Positions 172 to 4,952 of a DNA stretch of 5,560 bases are shown here, piece by piece. Source of the stretch: DRGV01 sp018903055 [NCBI: bacterium] (lineage in GTDB: Bacteria; UBP18; UBA7526); assembly GCA_018903055.1 (NCBI GenBank), contig JAHIPW010000046.1, positions 1 through 5,560 on the forward strand. Reading direction: 5' to 3'. Below the pieces are notes generated by a model. That model had not been told where the DNA came from. It searched no databases and saw only the letters and a list, made by a program, of their open reading frames with translations. A program made the translations under genes and the position numbers. Every line of letters begins with the position of its first letter. The stretch's first letter is position 1.

Positions 172-181
172 CAGAAATTTC

Positions 182-290
182 GGTAATCGGTTGCGGTTAC
201 GCAACTCGTTACGGCTATCGTTGAAGGTTATTCGGCAAAACACGCAACCGTAAGACGTAAGACGAAACGAGCCTCGCAACCTTTCAACGT
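182..290. repeat. Interleaved inverted repeats between radA and yacL
   Basis: The gap is full of short complementary words. GTTGCG (190-195) and CGCAAC (200-205) form a hairpin with loop GTTA. CGGTTGCG (188-195) is also perfectly complementary to CGCAACCG (243-250), and GGTTGCG (189-195) to CGCAACC (275-281), so the left arm has three possible partners. CTCGTT (205-210) pairs with AACGAG (266-271), and CGTTGAA (219-225) with TTCAACG (283-289). A 7-bp tandem CGTAAGA lies at 249-255 and 256-262. No T-tract follows any stem, so an intrinsic terminator for radA is not supported. The words GTAATCGGT (183-191) and GCGGTTACG (193-201) recur in other gaps of the window. Confidence 0.75.
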
Positions 291-303
291 ATGACGAAAT
301 CAG

Positions 304-313
304 AAGGAGGTGA
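304..313 (+). promoter_or_regulatory. Strong ribosome binding site deciding the yacL start
   Basis: AAGGAGGTGA is a near-perfect anti-Shine-Dalgarno match, ending 7 bases before the ATG at 321. It selects that ATG over an in-frame ATG at 291, which lies inside the repeat tract and has no such site. Confidence 0.85.
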
Positions 314-320
314 GAAAGAA

Positions 321-1295
321 ATGATCTGGATAATAAGAGTTCTTTTTTTATTTATCTGTGCTGGTTTAGGTTATCGCCTTATAGATGATAGGCTTGGTCT
401 CTTGGCCTTTTCCCTGGGAGCAGTGGCTATCCTTCTATTAGAATTCGCTTCTAAGAGAGTTCGCCTGAAGACTTTCTTAATAGTAGCCTCAGGACTTATT
501 GTTGGATTAATCTGTGCTAATCTCCTGGCCTATTGTATTACCCTCGTTCCCTTTTCTTATCCCATACCACGCTTTATCTTCATTGCCCTGAACCTTTCTT
601 TAGGTTATCTGGGAATAATCATCGCCTGGAAGAAGAGGGACGAGATTGCCTTTGCTTCCCTGACCTCGAAGAGAAAGATTACGCCCCGGGAGGGAGCAAG
701 AACAAAGGTCTTAGATACCAGTGTCATCATCGATGGAAGGATTGCCGACATCTGTCAGACGAAGTTTGTGGAAGGAACCCTCCTCATCCCCAGATTTGTT
801 TTAAGGGAACTACAATCCATCGCTGACTCTTCCGATTCTCTGAAGAGGAATCGGGGAAGGAGGGGGCTGGATATCCTGAACCGGCTCCAGAAGCAGAAGG
901 ATTTGGATGTCAAGATAAGCGAGCAGGACTTCCCGGCAATTAGAGAGGTGGATGGAAAGCTCATCCAATTGACCAAGGTCCTGGATGGCCTCCTGGTAAC
1001 GAATGACTTTAACCTCAATAAGGTAGCTGAGCTTCAGGCAGTAGAGGTCTTAAACGTCAATGAACTGGCTAATGCCTTGAGACCCGTGGTTCTTCCTGGT
1101 GAGGTGATGAATGTGCGCATCATAAAGGGAGGAAAGGATCCTGGTCAGGGAGTGGCCTATCTTGATGATGGGACTATGGTGGTAGTTGATGAGGGCGAAG
1201 ATTTCATGGGAAAGACCATGGATGTTGTGGTGACCAGTGTCTTACAAACCACCGCGGGAAGGATGATCTTTACCCGCCTGAAAGAAGCCACTTAA
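321..1295 (+). CDS. yacL: YacL-type membrane-anchored PIN/TRAM domain protein
   Basis: A 324-residue integral membrane protein with a cytosolic nuclease-like part. Four hydrophobic segments fall at about 1-20, 25-41, 51-73 and 83-103. A PIN domain follows at about 128-252, opening with K-V-L-D-T-S-V-I-I-D-G-R-I and carrying the family block S-D-S-L-K-R-N-R-G-R-R-G-L-D-I-L. Candidate metal-binding acids are D132, E163, D211 and D229 (in V-T-N-D-F-N-L-N-K), so the PIN site looks intact. A TRAM-like RNA-binding domain occupies about 257-320, starting at L-P-G-E and including D-P-G-Q-G-V-A-Y-L-D-D-G-T-M. Length and domain order match Bacillus YacL. PIN domains are usually Mg-dependent RNases, so a membrane-tethered RNase is the likely role, but the substrate is not known to me. 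The start at 321 follows the strong site at 304-313; starting at 291 would add 10 polar residues before the first membrane segment. The gene sits between radA and ispD as in Firmicutes, without disA. Confidence 0.9.
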   Translation: MIWIIRVLFLFICAGLGYRLIDDRLGLLAFSLGAVAILLLEFASKRVRLKTFLIVASGLIVGLICANLLAYCITLVPFSYPIPRFIFIALNLSLGYLGIIIAWKKRDEIAFASLTSKRKITPREGARTKVLDTSVIIDGRIADICQTKFVEGTLLIPRFVLRELQSIADSSDSLKRNRGRRGLDILNRLQKQKDLDVKISEQDFPAIREVDGKLIQLTKVLDGLLVTNDFNLNKVAELQAVEVLNVNELANALRPVVLPGEVMNVRIIKGGKDPGQGVAYLDDGTMVVVDEGEDFMGKTMDVVVTSVLQTTAGRMIFTRLKEAT

Positions 1296-1298
1296 TAT

Positions 1299-1365
1299 AG
1301 TGACCGGTGACCAGTGACCGGTGACCAGTAAAAAACCGATCACCGATGACCGATTACTGATTACC
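1299..1365. repeat. Heptamer repeats as an imperfect inverted repeat, yacL-ispD gap
   Basis: The left arm (1299-1329) is a 14-bp tandem, AGTGACCGGTGACC at 1299-1312 and again at 1313-1326, i.e. four GTGACC(G/A) heptamers. The right arm (1335-1365) is another heptamer run: CCGATCA, CCGATGA, CCGATTA, CTGATTA. Reverse-complemented, the 31-base right arm aligns with the 31-base left arm without gaps at 20 positions by hand count; all but one of the differences are transitions, and several leave G-U pairs. The loop is AAAAA (1330-1334). No T-run follows, so a classical terminator is unlikely. The array stops just before the ispD ribosome binding site (AGGAAG, 1370-1375). Confidence 0.8.
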
Positions 1366-1381
1366 AGACAGGAAGTGCTGT

Positions 1382-2083
1382 ATGAAAGTGGTGGCTGTTG
1401 TTCCCAGTGCGGGGAAAAGTGAAAGGATGGGAGAAAAGAAGGAGTTCCTTCTTTTGGGTGATAAACCTATCCTGGCTCATACCTTGAAACCTTTAGAAGA
1501 TCATCCCCGAATCTCTGAGATTATCTTAGTAGTCGATGAGAAGAGTGTAGAAAAGTGCAAAAGGGAGATTGTTGAGAAGTATGGCTTTAAGAAAGTTAAA
1601 GAAGTAGTCGTTGGGGGAGAGGAAAGGCAGGATTCTGTCTATAATGGCCTAAAGAAAATAACCAAGGATTGTGATATCGTTCTCATCCAGGATGGTGCCC
1701 GCCCCTTCCTAACCGAGGATTTGATCACCAGATCTATTGAGGAAGCAGAGAAGCATAAGGTAGCGGTAGTTGCTGTTTCCTGTATCGACACCATAAAGTT
1801 TGCCCGAAAAGAGAATAATATGGCCTTAGAGACTTTGGATAGGGACCACCTCTGGATGGCCCAGACCCCCCAGACCTTTAGATATGAGTTAATTCTAAAG
1901 GCCTATGAAAAGGCAGAAGAGGAAAACTTCAAAGGGACAGATGATGCTTCTTTAGTAGAGAGGATGGGGATAGCGGTAAAAATTGTAAGAGGCTCCTATG
2001 ACAATATTAAGATTACCACTCCAGAGGATCTAATCTTAGCAGAAGCCATCCTAACCAAAAGAAAGGTTACTAAGAGTTACTAG
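1382..2083 (+). CDS. ispD: 2-C-methyl-D-erythritol 4-phosphate cytidylyltransferase
   Basis: IspD catalyses the third step of the MEP pathway: CTP plus 2-C-methyl-D-erythritol 4-phosphate gives CDP-methylerythritol and pyrophosphate, in the cytosol. The protein has 233 residues, typical for the single-domain enzyme (not an IspDF fusion). The N-terminal nucleotide-binding loop is P8-S-A-G-K-S-E-R-M-G, with R15 and K20 in the places of E. coli R20 and K27. The block Q-D-G-A-R-P gives D104 (E. coli D106), D-R-D-H-L-W gives R154 (R157), and D-N-I-K-I-T gives K210 (K213). The segment V-G-G-E-E-R-Q-D-S-V (77-86) is also typical. So all key residues are present. The ATG follows AGGAAG at 1370-1375 with a 6-base gap. 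The last residues, about K226-Y233, are encoded by the start of a GTTAC repeat array, which also supplies the TAG stop. IspF follows; ispE, the step between them, is not in the window. Confidence 0.96.
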   Translation: MKVVAVVPSAGKSERMGEKKEFLLLGDKPILAHTLKPLEDHPRISEIILVVDEKSVEKCKREIVEKYGFKKVKEVVVGGEERQDSVYNGLKKITKDCDIVLIQDGARPFLTEDLITRSIEEAEKHKVAVVAVSCIDTIKFARKENNMALETLDRDHLWMAQTPQTFRYELILKAYEKAEEENFKGTDDASLVERMGIAVKIVRGSYDNIKITTPEDLILAEAILTKRKVTKSY

Positions 2084-2112
2084 CGGTTACGAATAGTTAC
2101 TATCAGTTACAA

Positions 2113-2171
2113 AGCAACCGATAGTAACAGCCCCCGCTAAAAGCGGGGGTGTAGCAACCGATAGTAACAGC
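2113..2171. repeat. Two 19-bp direct repeats at 40-bp spacing
   Basis: AGCAACCGATAGTAACAGC occurs at 2113-2131 and identically at 2153-2171. The 21 bases between them are almost entirely one arm, loop and second arm of the GC-rich hairpin. The layout resembles either a 40-bp unit partly duplicated or a small hairpin insertion flanked by duplicated target sequence. Confidence 0.9.
2131..2149. repeat. GC-rich hairpin between ispD and ispF
   Basis: CCCCCGCT (2131-2138) and AGCGGGGG (2142-2149) form a perfect 8-bp stem with an AAA loop. The 3' side reads TGTAGCAACC, not a T-run, so it does not meet the standard form of a rho-independent terminator. It could still pause RNA polymerase or protect transcript ends. 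Confidence 0.85.
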
Positions 2172-2206
2172 GAAGCCTAGTAACCATTATACTGACGGAG
2201 AAAGAG

Positions 2207-2668
2207 ATGAAGGTTGGTATGGGATACGATGTTCATAAGTTAGTTGAGGGAAGGAGACTTATCTTAGGTGGGGTGGAGATCCCTTTTGGAAGAGGATTAC
2301 TTGGTCATTCAGATGGGGATGTTCTCTTGCATGCCATATGCGATGCCTTATTAGGAGCGGCAGGAAAGGGTGATATTGGACAACACTTTCCAGATACCAA
2401 TCCAGAATATAAGGACATCTCAAGCCTCATCCTTATTGAGAAGGTGAAGGGGCTAACAAAGGAATATAAGATAAATAACATAGATAGCATCATTATTGCT
2501 CAGGAGCCAAAACTCGCTCCCTATCTTTCAAAGATGAAAGAGAATATTACCAAAGTATTGAAGATAGACAAAAGCAAGATCAACATCAAGGCAACCACTA
2601 CTGAAGGATTAGGTTCCATAGGAAGAGGGGAAGGAATAGCCGCCTACGCCATGGTAAGTCTCGAATGA
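2207..2668 (+). CDS. ispF: 2-C-methyl-D-erythritol 2,4-cyclodiphosphate synthase
   Basis: IspF is the fifth MEP-pathway enzyme: it cyclises CDP-methylerythritol 2-phosphate to methylerythritol 2,4-cyclodiphosphate with loss of CMP, as a homotrimer with zinc at each active site. The protein has 153 residues, close to the family norm of about 157. Zinc ligands D8, H10 and H42 are present in G-Y-D-V-H and L-L-H-A. The H34-S-D-G-D loop, the A-A-G-K-G-D56-I-G-Q-H-F-P-D-T block and the C-terminal A-T-T-T-E133[10 protein letters not shown] signature are complete. The ATG at 2207 is preceded by GGAG (2197-2200) at a 6-base gap, and the protein starts M-K-V-G-M-G-Y-D as the family does. The stop overlaps the next start as ATGA. 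Confidence 0.97.
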
Positions 2669-3324
2669 AATATCATCTTTCCTTAATTATTGTAATCGTT
2701 ATACTTTCATTGTTAAGCAGAAATGAAATATTAGCAGGAGAGAAGACGAAGATAGTAATTAATATCCCGACCACAACTTTGTATCTTTACCAAGGAGATG
2801 AACTAATTAAAAAGTATCGAATAACGGTTGGTCGCATAGATGCTCCCACACCCATTGGGAATTTCAAGGTAATTAATAAAAGGATCAAACCCACCTGGTA
2901 TCCTCCGGATGGAAGGAACCCCATCCCACCCGGTCCAAAGAATGAGCTGGGAACGAGATGGATTGGGATAGATAAGCCCCACTTTGGGATACATGGGACG
3001 ATCAAGCCCCGGGAGATAGGGAAAGCCACTTCGGATGGCTGCGTGAGGCTCAAGAACAAAGATATTGAGGAGCTATATCCGCTCATTTCTCTAACGGCGC
3101 CGGTTGAAATCAGATATCAGACAATCGATGTGAAACAAGAAGATGGACTATTTAAGATCACCATCTATTCCGACATCTATGCTTTAGGAACAAATACCAT
3201 AAAGAGATTAAGGAAAGAGACGGGTTTGGAGATGGATGACTCTTTCTGGGAGGATGCCATAAAAAAAGCAGAGGAGAAGGGGAGTTATTGTTTTACTGTC
3301 TTTTCTGGAGGAAAAAGAGAGTGA
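2665..3324 (+). CDS. Secreted L,D-transpeptidase (YkuD/ErfK family)
   Basis: A 219-residue exported cell-wall enzyme. Family members use a catalytic cysteine to form 3-3 peptidoglycan cross-links or attach proteins to peptidoglycan, outside the cytoplasmic membrane. A signal peptide is visible: K2, a hydrophobic core at about 5-17, and a likely cut after A24 in I-L-A-G. The +1 residue region has no cysteine, so it is not a lipoprotein. The YkuD domain spans about 28-150; the active-site block is F-G-I-H110-G-T followed by T-S123-D-G-C126-V-R128-L, all catalytic residues intact. The P-T-P-I-G-N-F motif (61-67) and P-T-W-Y-P-P (76-81) are typical. About 65 C-terminal residues follow the domain and I do not recognise them. 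The ATG overlaps the ispF stop by 4 bases and the stop overlaps the gltX GTG by 4 bases, so translation is probably coupled on both sides; its own ribosome binding site is weak. The exact substrate cannot be told from sequence. Confidence 0.9.
3307..3311 (+). promoter_or_regulatory. Ribosome binding site inside the transpeptidase gene, sets the gltX GTG start
   Basis: GGAGG lies 9 bases before GTG at 3321 and within the coding end of the transpeptidase gene. It supports that GTG as the gltX start; an in-frame ATG further upstream at 3288 has no comparable site. Confidence 0.75.
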
Positions 3325-4769
3325 GGATAAGGGTTCGCTTTGCTCCATCTCCCACCGGATATCTTCACGTTGGGGGAGCAAGAACGGCGCTCTTTAACTG
3401 GCTCTTTGCCCGCCACACAGATGGAACATTTATCCTGAGGATCGAGGATACGGACAGGAAGCGTTCTGCAGATAGATACGAGAAGGCTATTATTGATGAT
3501 TTGAGATATTTGGGGCTTGATTGGGATGAAGGATTGGGTATCGGTGGAAAGTATGGACCCTATCGCCAGAGTGAGAGATTCCCCCTTTATAAGGAATACG
3601 CTAAAAGATTATTAAAAGAGAAGAAGGCCTACTACTGCTACTGTACAGAGGTGGAACTGGAAGCAAGGAGAAAAGAAGCGCTAAGAAAGGGTCAGACACC
3701 GAGGTACGACGGGAGATGCCGCAATCTAAGAAAAGAAGAGATAAAGAGGTATAAGAAAGAAGGAAGAAAACCGACCATAAGATTCAAGGCCCCAAAGAAG
3801 AAAGTAGTGGTCTCTGATCTGGTGAGAGGAGAGGTGACATTTGAGGCCGATGCTCTGGGAGATTTCATCATCCTTCGCTCTGATGGGGTGGCGGCCTTCA
3901 ACTTCGCCAACATCATCGACGACATGAGTATGGAAATCACCCACGTAATTAGGGGAGAAGACCATCTTTCCAATACCCCCAGACAGATCCTCCTCTATCG
4001 GGCATTGGGGATAGAACCACCCAAGTTCGCCCATATCTCTATGATTCTTGGTCCAGATCGGGCACGACTTTCCAAGCGTCATGGAGCAACTGCAATTGCA
4101 GAATATAGAAAGAAGGGTTATCTGCCAGAAGCCTTGGTAAATTATCTCAGCCTCTTAGGATGGTATCCTCCGGATGGAAGAGAGATTAAATCTAAAAAGG
4201 AGTTGACAAAAGAGTTCTTTTTGGATAATATATCTAAGCCTCCCGCAGTCTTCGATAATCAGAAGCTGAACTGGATGAATGGTCACTATATAAGGAGCGC
4301 CCCGCTAAAGAGGATTACAGATTTAGCCATTCCCTACCTAAGAGAGGCAGGTTATCTAAAGGGAAGGATAACCCCGGCTAAGAAGAAGTGGCTTTTGAAA
4401 GTAATTGAAGCCACTCGGACCCATCTGGAATATTTAGCCCAAGTACCGAAAGAAGTAGAGGTCTTCTTTGCCAAAGAGGTTAAGATTTCTAAAGAAGGAA
4501 AAGAGATTCTTAAAAAAGAGTCGAGTAAAAGAGTCTTGTCTACCTTGAAGAATAAGTTAAAGGAAATAAAAGAGATTACAGATAAGAATTTCAAGTCCTT
4601 AGTAAAAGAGATAGAGAAAGAGACCGGCTATAAGGGAAAAGACCTCTATCTGCCCATAAGGATTGCCCTCACGGGCAAGAATAGAGGTCCAGAACTACGT
4701 TTTATTTTACCCATCTTGGGCAAGAAGGAATGCCTCAGAAGACTCTCCTTAGGTAGAGTAGGAAAGTAG
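3321..4769 (+). CDS. gltX: Glutamyl-tRNA synthetase
   Basis: A class I aminoacyl-tRNA synthetase that charges tRNA-Glu with glutamate using ATP in the cytosol. From the GTG start it has 482 residues, the usual bacterial length, beginning [13 protein letters not shown]. The HIGH motif is H16-V-G-G and the KMSKS counterpart is R249-L-S-K-R, a common GluRS form. F-I-L-R-I-E-D-T-D (37-45) recognises glutamate. The zinc-binding insertion has C106-Y-C108 and later D-G-R-C133-R-N135; E. coli has His where N135 stands. The R-G-E-D-H block (211-215), F-D-N-Q-K-L-N-W-M-N-G (311-321) and a lysine-rich anticodon-binding domain to the C-terminus (G-P-E-L-R-F at 456-461) complete the fold. An upstream in-frame ATG at 3288 lies deep in the preceding gene and would add non-conserved residues. 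GltX is the end of the conserved radA-gltX block. Whether it is discriminating or also charges tRNA-Gln cannot be told here. Confidence 0.96.
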   Translation: MRIRVRFAPSPTGYLHVGGARTALFNWLFARHTDGTFILRIEDTDRKRSADRYEKAIIDDLRYLGLDWDEGLGIGGKYGPYRQSERFPLYKEYAKRLLKEKKAYYCYCTEVELEARRKEALRKGQTPRYDGRCRNLRKEEIKRYKKEGRKPTIRFKAPKKKVVVSDLVRGEVTFEADALGDFIILRSDGVAAFNFANIIDDMSMEITHVIRGEDHLSNTPRQILLYRALGIEPPKFAHISMILGPDRARLSKRHGATAIAEYRKKGYLPEALVNYLSLLGWYPPDGREIKSKKELTKEFFLDNISKPPAVFDNQKLNWMNGHYIRSAPLKRITDLAIPYLREAGYLKGRITPAKKKWLLKVIEATRTHLEYLAQVPKEVEVFFAKEVKISKEGKEILKKESSKRVLSTLKNKLKEIKEITDKNFKSLVKEIEKETGYKGKDLYLPIRIALTGKNRGPELRFILPILGKKECLRRLSLGRVGK

Positions 4770-4796
4770 AAGAGAAGAAAAGTAGGAGAGTAAAAA

Positions 4797-4836
4797 GGAT
4801 ATCCGGTTATCCGGTAATCAGGTAATCGGTGATCAG
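4797..4836. repeat. Octamer repeats (ATCNGGTA type), gltX-galT gap
   Basis: Near-identical units ATCCGGTT (4801), ATCCGGTA (4809), ATCAGGTA (4817) and ATCGGTG (4825) run in tandem, ending ATCAG at 4832-4836. The tract begins with the palindrome GGATATCC (4797-4804). The word GTAATCGGT at 4822-4830 is identical to 183-191 and is the reverse complement of 1349-1357, linking this array to those in other gaps. Confidence 0.8.
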
Positions 4837-4855
4837 AGTCACTATCGAGATATCA

Positions 4856-4930
4856 ATCTGTCGAGAACAAGGTTTAGACATTCAGTATCTGTGATCTGTG
4901 CTCATCTGTAATAAATCTGTGATAATCTGT
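4856..4930. repeat. ATCTGT array upstream of galT
   Basis: ATCTGT occurs six times, starting at 4856, 4887, 4894, 4904, 4915 and 4925; the last four are spaced 10-11 bases apart, close to one helical turn. I recall similar 'ATCTGTG' spacer tracts from other uncultivated-bacterium genomes but cannot cite an instance. An extended -10-like TGTGATAAT (4918-4926) falls inside it with no convincing -35, so promoter activity is only a weak possibility. Confidence 0.75.
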
Positions 4931-4937
4931 GTCTAAA
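4873..4937. repeat. 8-bp inverted repeat bracketing the ATCTGT array
   Basis: TTTAGACA (4873-4880) is perfectly complementary to TGTCTAAA (4930-4937). The right arm runs into the A-tract at the start of the galT ribosome binding site (4935-4944), so a stem here could affect access to that site. The 49-base loop contains five of the six ATCTGT copies, the last only in part. Confidence 0.7.
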
Positions 4938-4944
4938 AGGAGGT
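4935..4944 (+). promoter_or_regulatory. Strong ribosome binding site of galT
   Basis: AAAAGGAGGT ends 8 bases before ATG at 4953 and fixes the galT start. Confidence 0.85.
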
Positions 4945-4952
4945 CTAACGGG

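What the first reader, a model, noticed from the sequence alone, without database searches (positions are those of the whole stretch)
172..4952. Related degenerate repeats fill every open gene gap and no overlapping junction
Four of four non-overlapping boundaries (172-320, 1296-1381, 2084-2206, 4770-4952) hold arrays of 7-, 8- or 10-bp units, mostly in inverted arrangement; the two 4-base overlaps have none. Shared words tie them together: GTAATCGGT at 183-191, 1349-1357 (minus strand) and 4822-4830; GCGGTTACG at 193-201 and 2083-2091. Each array ends shortly before an intact ribosome binding site. Unit length and sequence drift, mainly by transitions, while hairpin potential persists, suggesting a spacer-repeat family that spreads or is maintained for structure. 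REP-like element, gyrase or nucleoid site, or mRNA-end stabiliser are all open.
Basis: partly seen in the sequence, partly recalled or inferred. Interest (0 to 1): 0.72.

Follow-up and report, generated by a model that had tools for sequence, protein, structure and literature searches.

The report
Gene-gap repeats are mobile-element-like remnants
The repeat-filled gaps between these genes look like empty shells of small selfish DNA elements whose full versions carry a small protein gene between two mirror-image arrays of short repeats, an arrangement also found in unrelated bacteria.

Summary
All four gaps carry short-unit repeats, but gaps 1 and 4 as wholes fold no better than shuffled sequence, and GCGGTTACG is not a genome-wide word. 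The gap sequences belong to families dispersed through a small genome related to 'UBP18': 122 of 157 gaps resemble another gap, against 0-10 of 157 coding pieces. In relatives the same junctions are empty (a 4-base ATGA overlap) or hold a different family, so insertion makes the gap. Longer relatives of these repeats carry an ORF between inverted arrays of one unit: S23p (23S rRNA intervening-sequence protein, PF05635) or a GxxExxY nuclease-fold protein (PF13366). Gaps 1-3 match arms of S23p loci; gap 4 matches both arms of a GxxExxY locus of the same genome. At two orthologous junctions the arms are continuous in one species and interrupted by the S23p ORF in another. Most S23p loci tested in unrelated genomes, and 7 of 8 on named plasmids by eye, show the same anatomy with other units. 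No RAYT (4 genomes) or reverse transcriptase (6 genomes) was found. Movement is inferred; its enzyme is unknown. Best reading: ORF-less forms of array-armed, IVS-like selfish elements.

The parts
172..320 (+). Gap 1: family A repeat, ORF-less. 185-229 matches the left arm and 238-297 the right arm of the S23p locus L224 (G004).
   Evidence: 87% over 45 nt and 80% over 60 nt; also L169 and L209; five partner gaps, best 83% over 124 nt (L090:424-676).
1296..1381 (+). Gap 2: heptamer family B, GTGACCR array 1300-1329, loop, inverted array 1335-1365.
   Evidence: fold z -3.6; matches one (right) arm of the S23p locus L201 of the same genome, 88% over 34 nt.
2065..2206 (+). Gap 3: decamer family C. 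Array 2065-2114 overruns the last 19 bases of ispD; inverted copies from 2116; inner GC hairpin about 2131-2149.
   Evidence: fold z -4.4; matches both arms of the S23p locus L226 (G003), 78% over 83 nt and 71% over 49 nt (E 0.002).
4795..4845 (+). Gap 4, first half: octamer ATCCGGTA and heptamer-like units.
   Evidence: resembles arms of S23p loci L201 (93% over 29 nt) and L217 (82% over 34 nt).
4883..4939 (+). Gap 4, second half: family D (ATCTGTG units), a lone arm of GxxExxY type just before the galT ribosome binding site.
   Evidence: 4886-4939 matches the left arm (83% over 54 nt, inverted) and 4883-4931 the right arm (82% over 49 nt) of the GxxExxY locus L304 of the same genome.
2665..2668 (+). 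Unfilled 4-base ATGA overlap, ispF / L,D-transpeptidase gene.
3321..3324 (+). Unfilled 4-base GTGA overlap, L,D-transpeptidase gene / gltX.

Best explanation
The gap arrays are ORF-less or worn forms of array-armed selfish elements. A full element is: an array of one degenerate unit of roughly 7-12 bases, a small ORF, and the same array in mirror image. The ORF is S23p (four-helix bundle, the protein of 23S rRNA intervening sequences) or a GxxExxY protein (PD-(D/E)XK nuclease family); elements with CCCGCACC ends sometimes hold a GIY-YIG ORF. They enter gene junctions inside operons, in some cases exactly at an ATGA stop/start overlap, which they open into a gap while both genes keep a stop and a start. 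Without the ORF a hairpin of arrays remains. Shown: the anatomy; the matches of the window gaps to arms; arms with and without the ORF at orthologous junctions; filled and empty sites. Inferred: that they move; that ORF-less forms come from ORF loss rather than the reverse; that nuclease-type ORFs help entry in a homing-like way; that S23p binds the arms. The enzyme that moves the S23p type is unknown.
For: Dispersal: 122 of 157 gaps resemble another gap; coding pieces 0-10 of 157 in five draws. Insertion: gltX-galT is an ATGA overlap in L091, the same site plus a TIR-bounded insert in L093, and holds other families in L092 and the window; two more ATGA inserts of that family (L148, L159) face unfilled orthologous junctions. 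Of 72 junctions shared by G003 and G004, 15 were flagged filled in one and empty in the other; on reading I keep 11 and drop 4 (two gene-start errors, two non-orthologous pairs). S23p: 42 PF05635 matches in the six related genomes, 0 of 14 control genomes; arm score above the control 95th percentile in 19 of 28 scored loci, P 1e-10 against 1046 genes; 21 of 30 loci from unrelated genomes above the cross-pair 95th percentile. GxxExxY: 15 of 21 scored loci, P 3e-11; 10 of 17 loci from unrelated genomes. ORF-plus/minus pairs: L228/L031 (372 bases absent) and L224/L149 (408 bases absent), flanks continuous. Window gaps match arms. S23p is under purifying selection in the two pairs where dS could be measured: dN/dS 0.09 and 0.01.
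Against: No movement was seen. G000 gaps hit S23p flanks no more often (79 of 157) than flanks of random small genes (68-92 of 157), since most gaps share families. 9 of 28 S23p, 6 of 21 GxxExxY and 7 of 9 GIY-YIG loci scored do not pass the arm test. A plainer arm score passes only 13 of 27 S23p loci. Target duplication is visible only for the CCCGCACC family. Gap 2 matches one arm only. Family B double units in G004 are not gap-enriched (3 in gaps, 12 in coding). Purifying selection on S23p also fits a host role.
Confidence: 0.62

Rival explanations
1. Simple repeats born in place: arrays arise and drift by replication slippage and hairpin-templated repair in unconstrained gaps; small ORFs are passengers.
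For: Units differ between gaps and are degenerate; a small transition excess in direct arrays; bacterial heptamer repeats have been ascribed to polymerase slippage (PMC4679880 introduction).
Against: Long near-copies at different junctions (91-97% over 113-145 nt); filled and empty orthologous sites; the two sides of S23p and GxxExxY genes share a unit beyond controls.
Confidence: 0.15
2. Host-kept mRNA elements: hairpins processed by RNase III or acting as 3'-end stabilisers or translation spacers, spread by recombination and kept for function; S23p regulates them.
For: Folding z below -2 in 82 of 147 gaps; S23p lying between two co-directional genes reads with them in 23 of 23 and 18 of 18 cases and 6 of 7 annotated plasmid cases; S23p under purifying selection.
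Against: G.U against A.C pairs in stems 364/319, 586/604, 247/283: no consistent sense-strand wobble bias; the same junction holds different families or none in relatives.
Confidence: 0.13
3. REP/BIME-type palindromes moved by a RAYT transposase.
For: Short intergenic hairpins in many copies.
Against: No Y1 transposase in G000-G003 although the search rang in 5 of 14 control genomes; many unrelated units instead of one palindrome.
Confidence: 0.03

Closest known systems
Intervening sequences (IVS) of bacterial 23S rRNA with the S23p ORF (Coxiella burnetii IVS; PMC4990558, abstract and introduction read)
   Same: S23p ORF between complementary ends; called a selfish or parasitic element; ORF prone to decay.
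   Different: IVS sit in rRNA genes. Here the elements lie in gene gaps (no rRNA found by Rfam in 20 of the 30 unrelated S23p loci) and their ends are arrays of short degenerate units.
TAACTGA direct repeats of Beggiatoaceae, Cyanobacteria and Bacteroidetes (PMC4679880; abstract, introduction, first part of results and one discussion section read)
   Same: Intergenic heptamer arrays upstream of start codons, patchy distribution across phyla.
   Different: There one fixed unit, mostly direct, with possible translational regulation proposed; no link to S23p in that text (find). Here many units, usually mirrored, tied to ORFs.
MITEs, e.g. BrickBuilt of Porphyromonas gingivalis, a MITE holding a minisatellite (PMC4596501; abstract and outline seen)
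   Same: Short intergenic non-autonomous elements with tandem repeats and inverted ends.
   Different: No parent transposon is known for the array families; the linked ORFs are not known transposases. The CCCGCACC family here is MITE-like in form.
REP elements and RAYTs (PMC3733652, abstract in a search listing; otherwise recalled)
   Same: Intergenic palindromes in many copies.
   Different: No single palindrome, no RAYT found in the four genomes searched.
Cyanobacterial STRR heptamers (recalled; no paper on their sequence read)
   Same: Heptamer arrays in gaps; the Nostoc edaphicum S23p gene is flanked by AGTAGGG arrays.
   Different: STRRs are described, as I recall, without a linked protein.

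Membership tests
23S rRNA IVS / S23p element | S23p ORF (PF05635/TIGR02436) in the full element | tested here: met
   In relatives of the window repeats; the window copies themselves have no ORF.
23S rRNA IVS / S23p element | Complementary ends around the ORF | tested here: met
   19 of 28 and 21 of 30 S23p loci above the 95th percentile of controls.
23S rRNA IVS / S23p element | Location inside an rRNA gene | tested here: not met
   Window gaps lie between protein genes; no rRNA in 20 S23p loci. So IVS-like, not IVS.
23S rRNA IVS / S23p element | RNase III excision of the transcript | not testable with these tools
   Needs RNA data.
MITE | Inverted ends and target duplication | tested here: inconclusive
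   CCCGCACC family: TIRs and an ATGA/TGAA duplication at ATGA overlaps, exact length ambiguous. Not shown for the window's families.
MITE | Cognate transposase element | tested here: inconclusive
   Y1 transposase absent in G000-G003, reverse transcriptase absent in G000-G005; DDE and other transposases not searched.
REP/RAYT | RAYT gene in the genome | tested here: not met
   0 in G000-G003; G004 and G005 not searched; G000 is 85% complete.
REP/RAYT | One short palindromic unit with a GTAG/CGTC tag (recalled) | tested here: not met
   Many unrelated units.
Long simple sequence repeats / STRR | Tandem short units mainly in gaps | tested here: met
Intrinsic terminators | GC hairpin followed by a T run | tested here: not met
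   Read: the GC hairpin of gap 3 (about 2131-2149) is followed by TGTAGC, no T run. The terminator scan was not run.

The most novel reading that the evidence does not exclude
A broad, so far unnamed class of bacterial selfish elements in which architecture is inherited rather than sequence: each copy has mirrored arrays of its own short unit around one of a few small ORFs (S23p, GxxExxY, perhaps GIY-YIG), and the repeat unit is rewritten between copies. At one junction three related species carry S23p elements with three different units and three different S23p proteins (L200, L208, L226). It would explain heptamer arrays and ATCTGTG-type repeats, and give two large families of unknown role a shared context.
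Probability: 0.35. Interest if true: 0.88.

Novelty: new variant of a known kind. Interest (0 to 1): 0.74.

Why it matters
S23p (a PF05635 match in 161 of 386 genomes searched) and GxxExxY (21 of 60) are common small protein families without a settled role, and short tandem arrays in bacterial gaps have been an open puzzle. If the arrays are the ends or shells of elements carrying these proteins, both questions become one testable question, and many 'regulatory' intergenic repeats would be insertion scars. I did not find this link in print in ten searches of one open-access library; subscription papers are mostly missing there, one search was swamped by cardiology papers, and one search showed 12 of 11,890.

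Tried and rejected
RAYT: searched, none in G000-G003. Reverse transcriptase, because S23p is a distant relative of the DGR protein Avd (two of four proteins, NCBIfam 1e-10 and 3e-4, both under the curated cut-off): none in six genomes. RNA-level selection through wobble pairs: no consistent bias. Known RNA family in the window: none. S23p in phage records by similarity to the L200 protein: none. Enrichment of S23p flanks among gap matches: not seen, control equal. GIY-YIG as general cargo: 2 of 9 scored loci pass, P 0.053, so kept only for the CCCGCACC family. First gene calls failed because withheld contigs read N; redone.

Rows dropped before counts: 18 of 60 sampled G000 contigs that read N, window contig added (43 contigs); gap 1 is not because its upstream ORF is cut; 30 of 42 S23p matches came with loci, 28 scored, 27; 21 of 22 GxxExxY loci scored, 10 of 18 GIY-YIG matches given and 9 scored; 17 of 21 loci with GxxExxY matches from unrelated genomes given, the four left out being partial or weak. 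The 30 unrelated S23p loci are the tool's best-scoring ones, not a random draw. 8 of 15 listed plasmid hits were opened.
Full report
What the window is. The window is contig 23 of a 1.085 Mb draft genome in 191 contigs, 85% complete. Its genes by Pfam are PIN-TRAM, IspD, IspF, an L,D-transpeptidase, a class I glutamyl/glutaminyl-type tRNA synthetase (called gltX here) and a GalT-type protein. The nearest named relatives by that synthetase are unnamed MAG bacteria and UBA7526 of 'UBP18', 80-87% identical.

The observation. All four gaps carry short-unit repeats and both 4-base overlaps carry none. Whole gaps 2 and 3 fold far better than shuffles, gaps 1 and 4 do not. A three-unit heptamer pattern (GTRAYYR) has 35 hits in the genome against 1 for the pattern read backwards; it is present in all five relatives of the same family and in 3 of 54 other genomes. 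In 43 contigs with 203 gaps, direct arrays and folding pass in about half of the gaps tested. Of 157 same-strand gaps, 122 resemble another gap at E 1e-3; equal coding pieces gave 2, 10, 4, 6 and 0 of 157. Window gaps 1 to 4 have 5, 2, 3 and 16 partner gaps. Read by eye, 75 of the 135 gaps of 60-400 bases show many families, each with its own unit. The window's families are gap-enriched in G000 and G003; in G004 family B is not.

Same junction, different contents. In gltX-galT, L091 has no gap, only an ATGA overlap. L093 has the same site with an insert bounded by TCCCGCACCTTT and its mirror image, and ATGA on both sides. L092 has a GTTTACGG hairpin, and the window has octamers plus ATCTGTG units. 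The ispD-ispF gap holds the same decamer family in the window and L093, and other families in L091 and L092. Filled/empty pairs were flagged in 15 of 72 shared junctions of G003/G004 and 10 of 46 of G000/G003. Reading the G003/G004 rows leaves 11 after dropping two gene-start errors and two non-orthologous pairs; the G000/G003 rows were not sifted one by one. Three inserts of the CCCGCACC family sit at ATGA junctions whose orthologues are unfilled (L093, L148, L159). This explains why overlaps have no repeats: insertion makes the gap.

The long versions. Two long gaps in G003 held ORFs between the repeats: a GIY-YIG ORF between CCCGCACC ends (PF01541 match G003:C35) and an S23p ORF between family A arms (PF05635 match G003:C30). 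PF05635 has 42 matches in the six genomes and none in 14 control genomes. Around S23p the two sides share one unit in mirror image, and the unit differs from locus to locus. With a transition-tolerant score 19 of 28 loci exceed the 95th percentile of 1046 genes, P 1e-10; with a plainer score 13 of 27, P 3e-8. In 30 S23p loci of unrelated genomes the median is 46 against 22 for arms swapped between loci and 23 for shifted positions; 21 of 30 exceed the swapped 95th percentile. None of 20 of these loci contains rRNA by Rfam. On named plasmids, mirrored arrays are visible in 7 of 8 opened loci: Nostoc edaphicum between two ribonucleotide reductase genes, Calothrix, Picosynechococcus between cas10 and cmr3, Trichormus, Geminocystis, Anabaena 90 between cas6 and cas4, and Azospirillum lipoferum; 6 of 8 exceed the swapped 95th percentile. 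Pseudanabaena has direct, not mirrored, arrays.

A second ORF family. A long G003 gap with ATCCGTG units held a GxxExxY ORF. PF13366 has 22 matches in the six genomes and rings in 3 of 14 controls. 15 of 21 scored loci exceed the control 95th percentile; 8 of 21 have at least two family D words on both sides, against 15 of 1046 genes. In 17 loci of unrelated genomes 10 exceed the shifted 95th percentile, often with CACAGAT- or CACAAAG-like units. Of 9 GIY-YIG loci scored only 2 pass.

The window placed. Gap 1 matches both arms of L224, gap 3 both arms of L226 (the second weakly), gap 2 one arm of L201 (same genome), and the first half of gap 4 arms of L201 and L217. The second half of gap 4 matches both arms of the GxxExxY locus L304 of the same genome. 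As a control, the G000 gaps at large match S23p flanks no more often than flanks of random small genes, because most gaps share families; so these matches say which families have ORF-bearing members, not that S23p flanks are special among gaps.

ORF-plus and ORF-minus at one site. L228 (G001) has S23p; L031 (G000) at the same junction has the same arms joined, 372 bases shorter. L224 (G004) has S23p; L149 (G003) has a family A type hairpin, 408 bases shorter. Direction (loss or gain of the ORF) is not shown. One junction carries three S23p elements with three units in G004, G001 and G003 (L200, L208, L226).

How it may work. S23p between two co-directional genes reads with them in 23 of 23 and 18 of 18 cases and in 6 of 7 annotated plasmid cases; Nostoc edaphicum is the exception. 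Two S23p pairs show dN/dS 0.09 and 0.01, so the protein is used. Stems show no consistent sense-strand wobble bias, which speaks against selection on the RNA fold. No reverse transcriptase in six genomes and no Y1 transposase in four. I infer a DNA-level selfish element: nuclease-type ORFs (GxxExxY, GIY-YIG) may open sites in a homing-like way, S23p may bind arms; how the S23p type moves is open. The Coxiella IVS is called a selfish element whose ORF is decaying (PMC4990558, abstract and introduction), and S23p ORFs were reported in rRNA insertions of CPR bacteria (PMC11270868, passages). The link of S23p or GxxExxY to arrays in gene gaps was not found in ten searches of one open-access library.

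Verdict. It is IVS-like but not an IVS, MITE-like but without a known transposase, and not REP/RAYT on present evidence.

Noticed in passing
L280, L283, L284 (plasmids of Picosynechococcus 7003, Pseudanabaena galeata, Anabaena sp. 90): S23p genes sit inside CRISPR operons: between cas10 and cmr3, and twice between cas6 and cas4.
   Followed up: partly
L218 (G000:C138): An S23p frame stays open into a second domain that looks, from recall of the motif, like a NUDIX hydrolase: possible fusion of an element to a gene.
   Followed up: no
43 sampled contigs of G000: 211 of 225 neighbouring gene pairs lie on the same strand.
   Followed up: no
   Followed up: no
window 2065-2083; G000 L084 junction 3-4: Arrays run into gene ends (last 19 bases of ispD; GAAAGTG units at the end of a gene), so elements change protein C-termini.
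   Followed up: no
G000 gaps in sense orientation: Some words are strongly strand-biased, e.g. GAAAGTG in 15 gaps forward only against 1 reverse only and 1 with both, ATGCAAA 10 against 1, CCGAACT 1 against 9.
   Followed up: no
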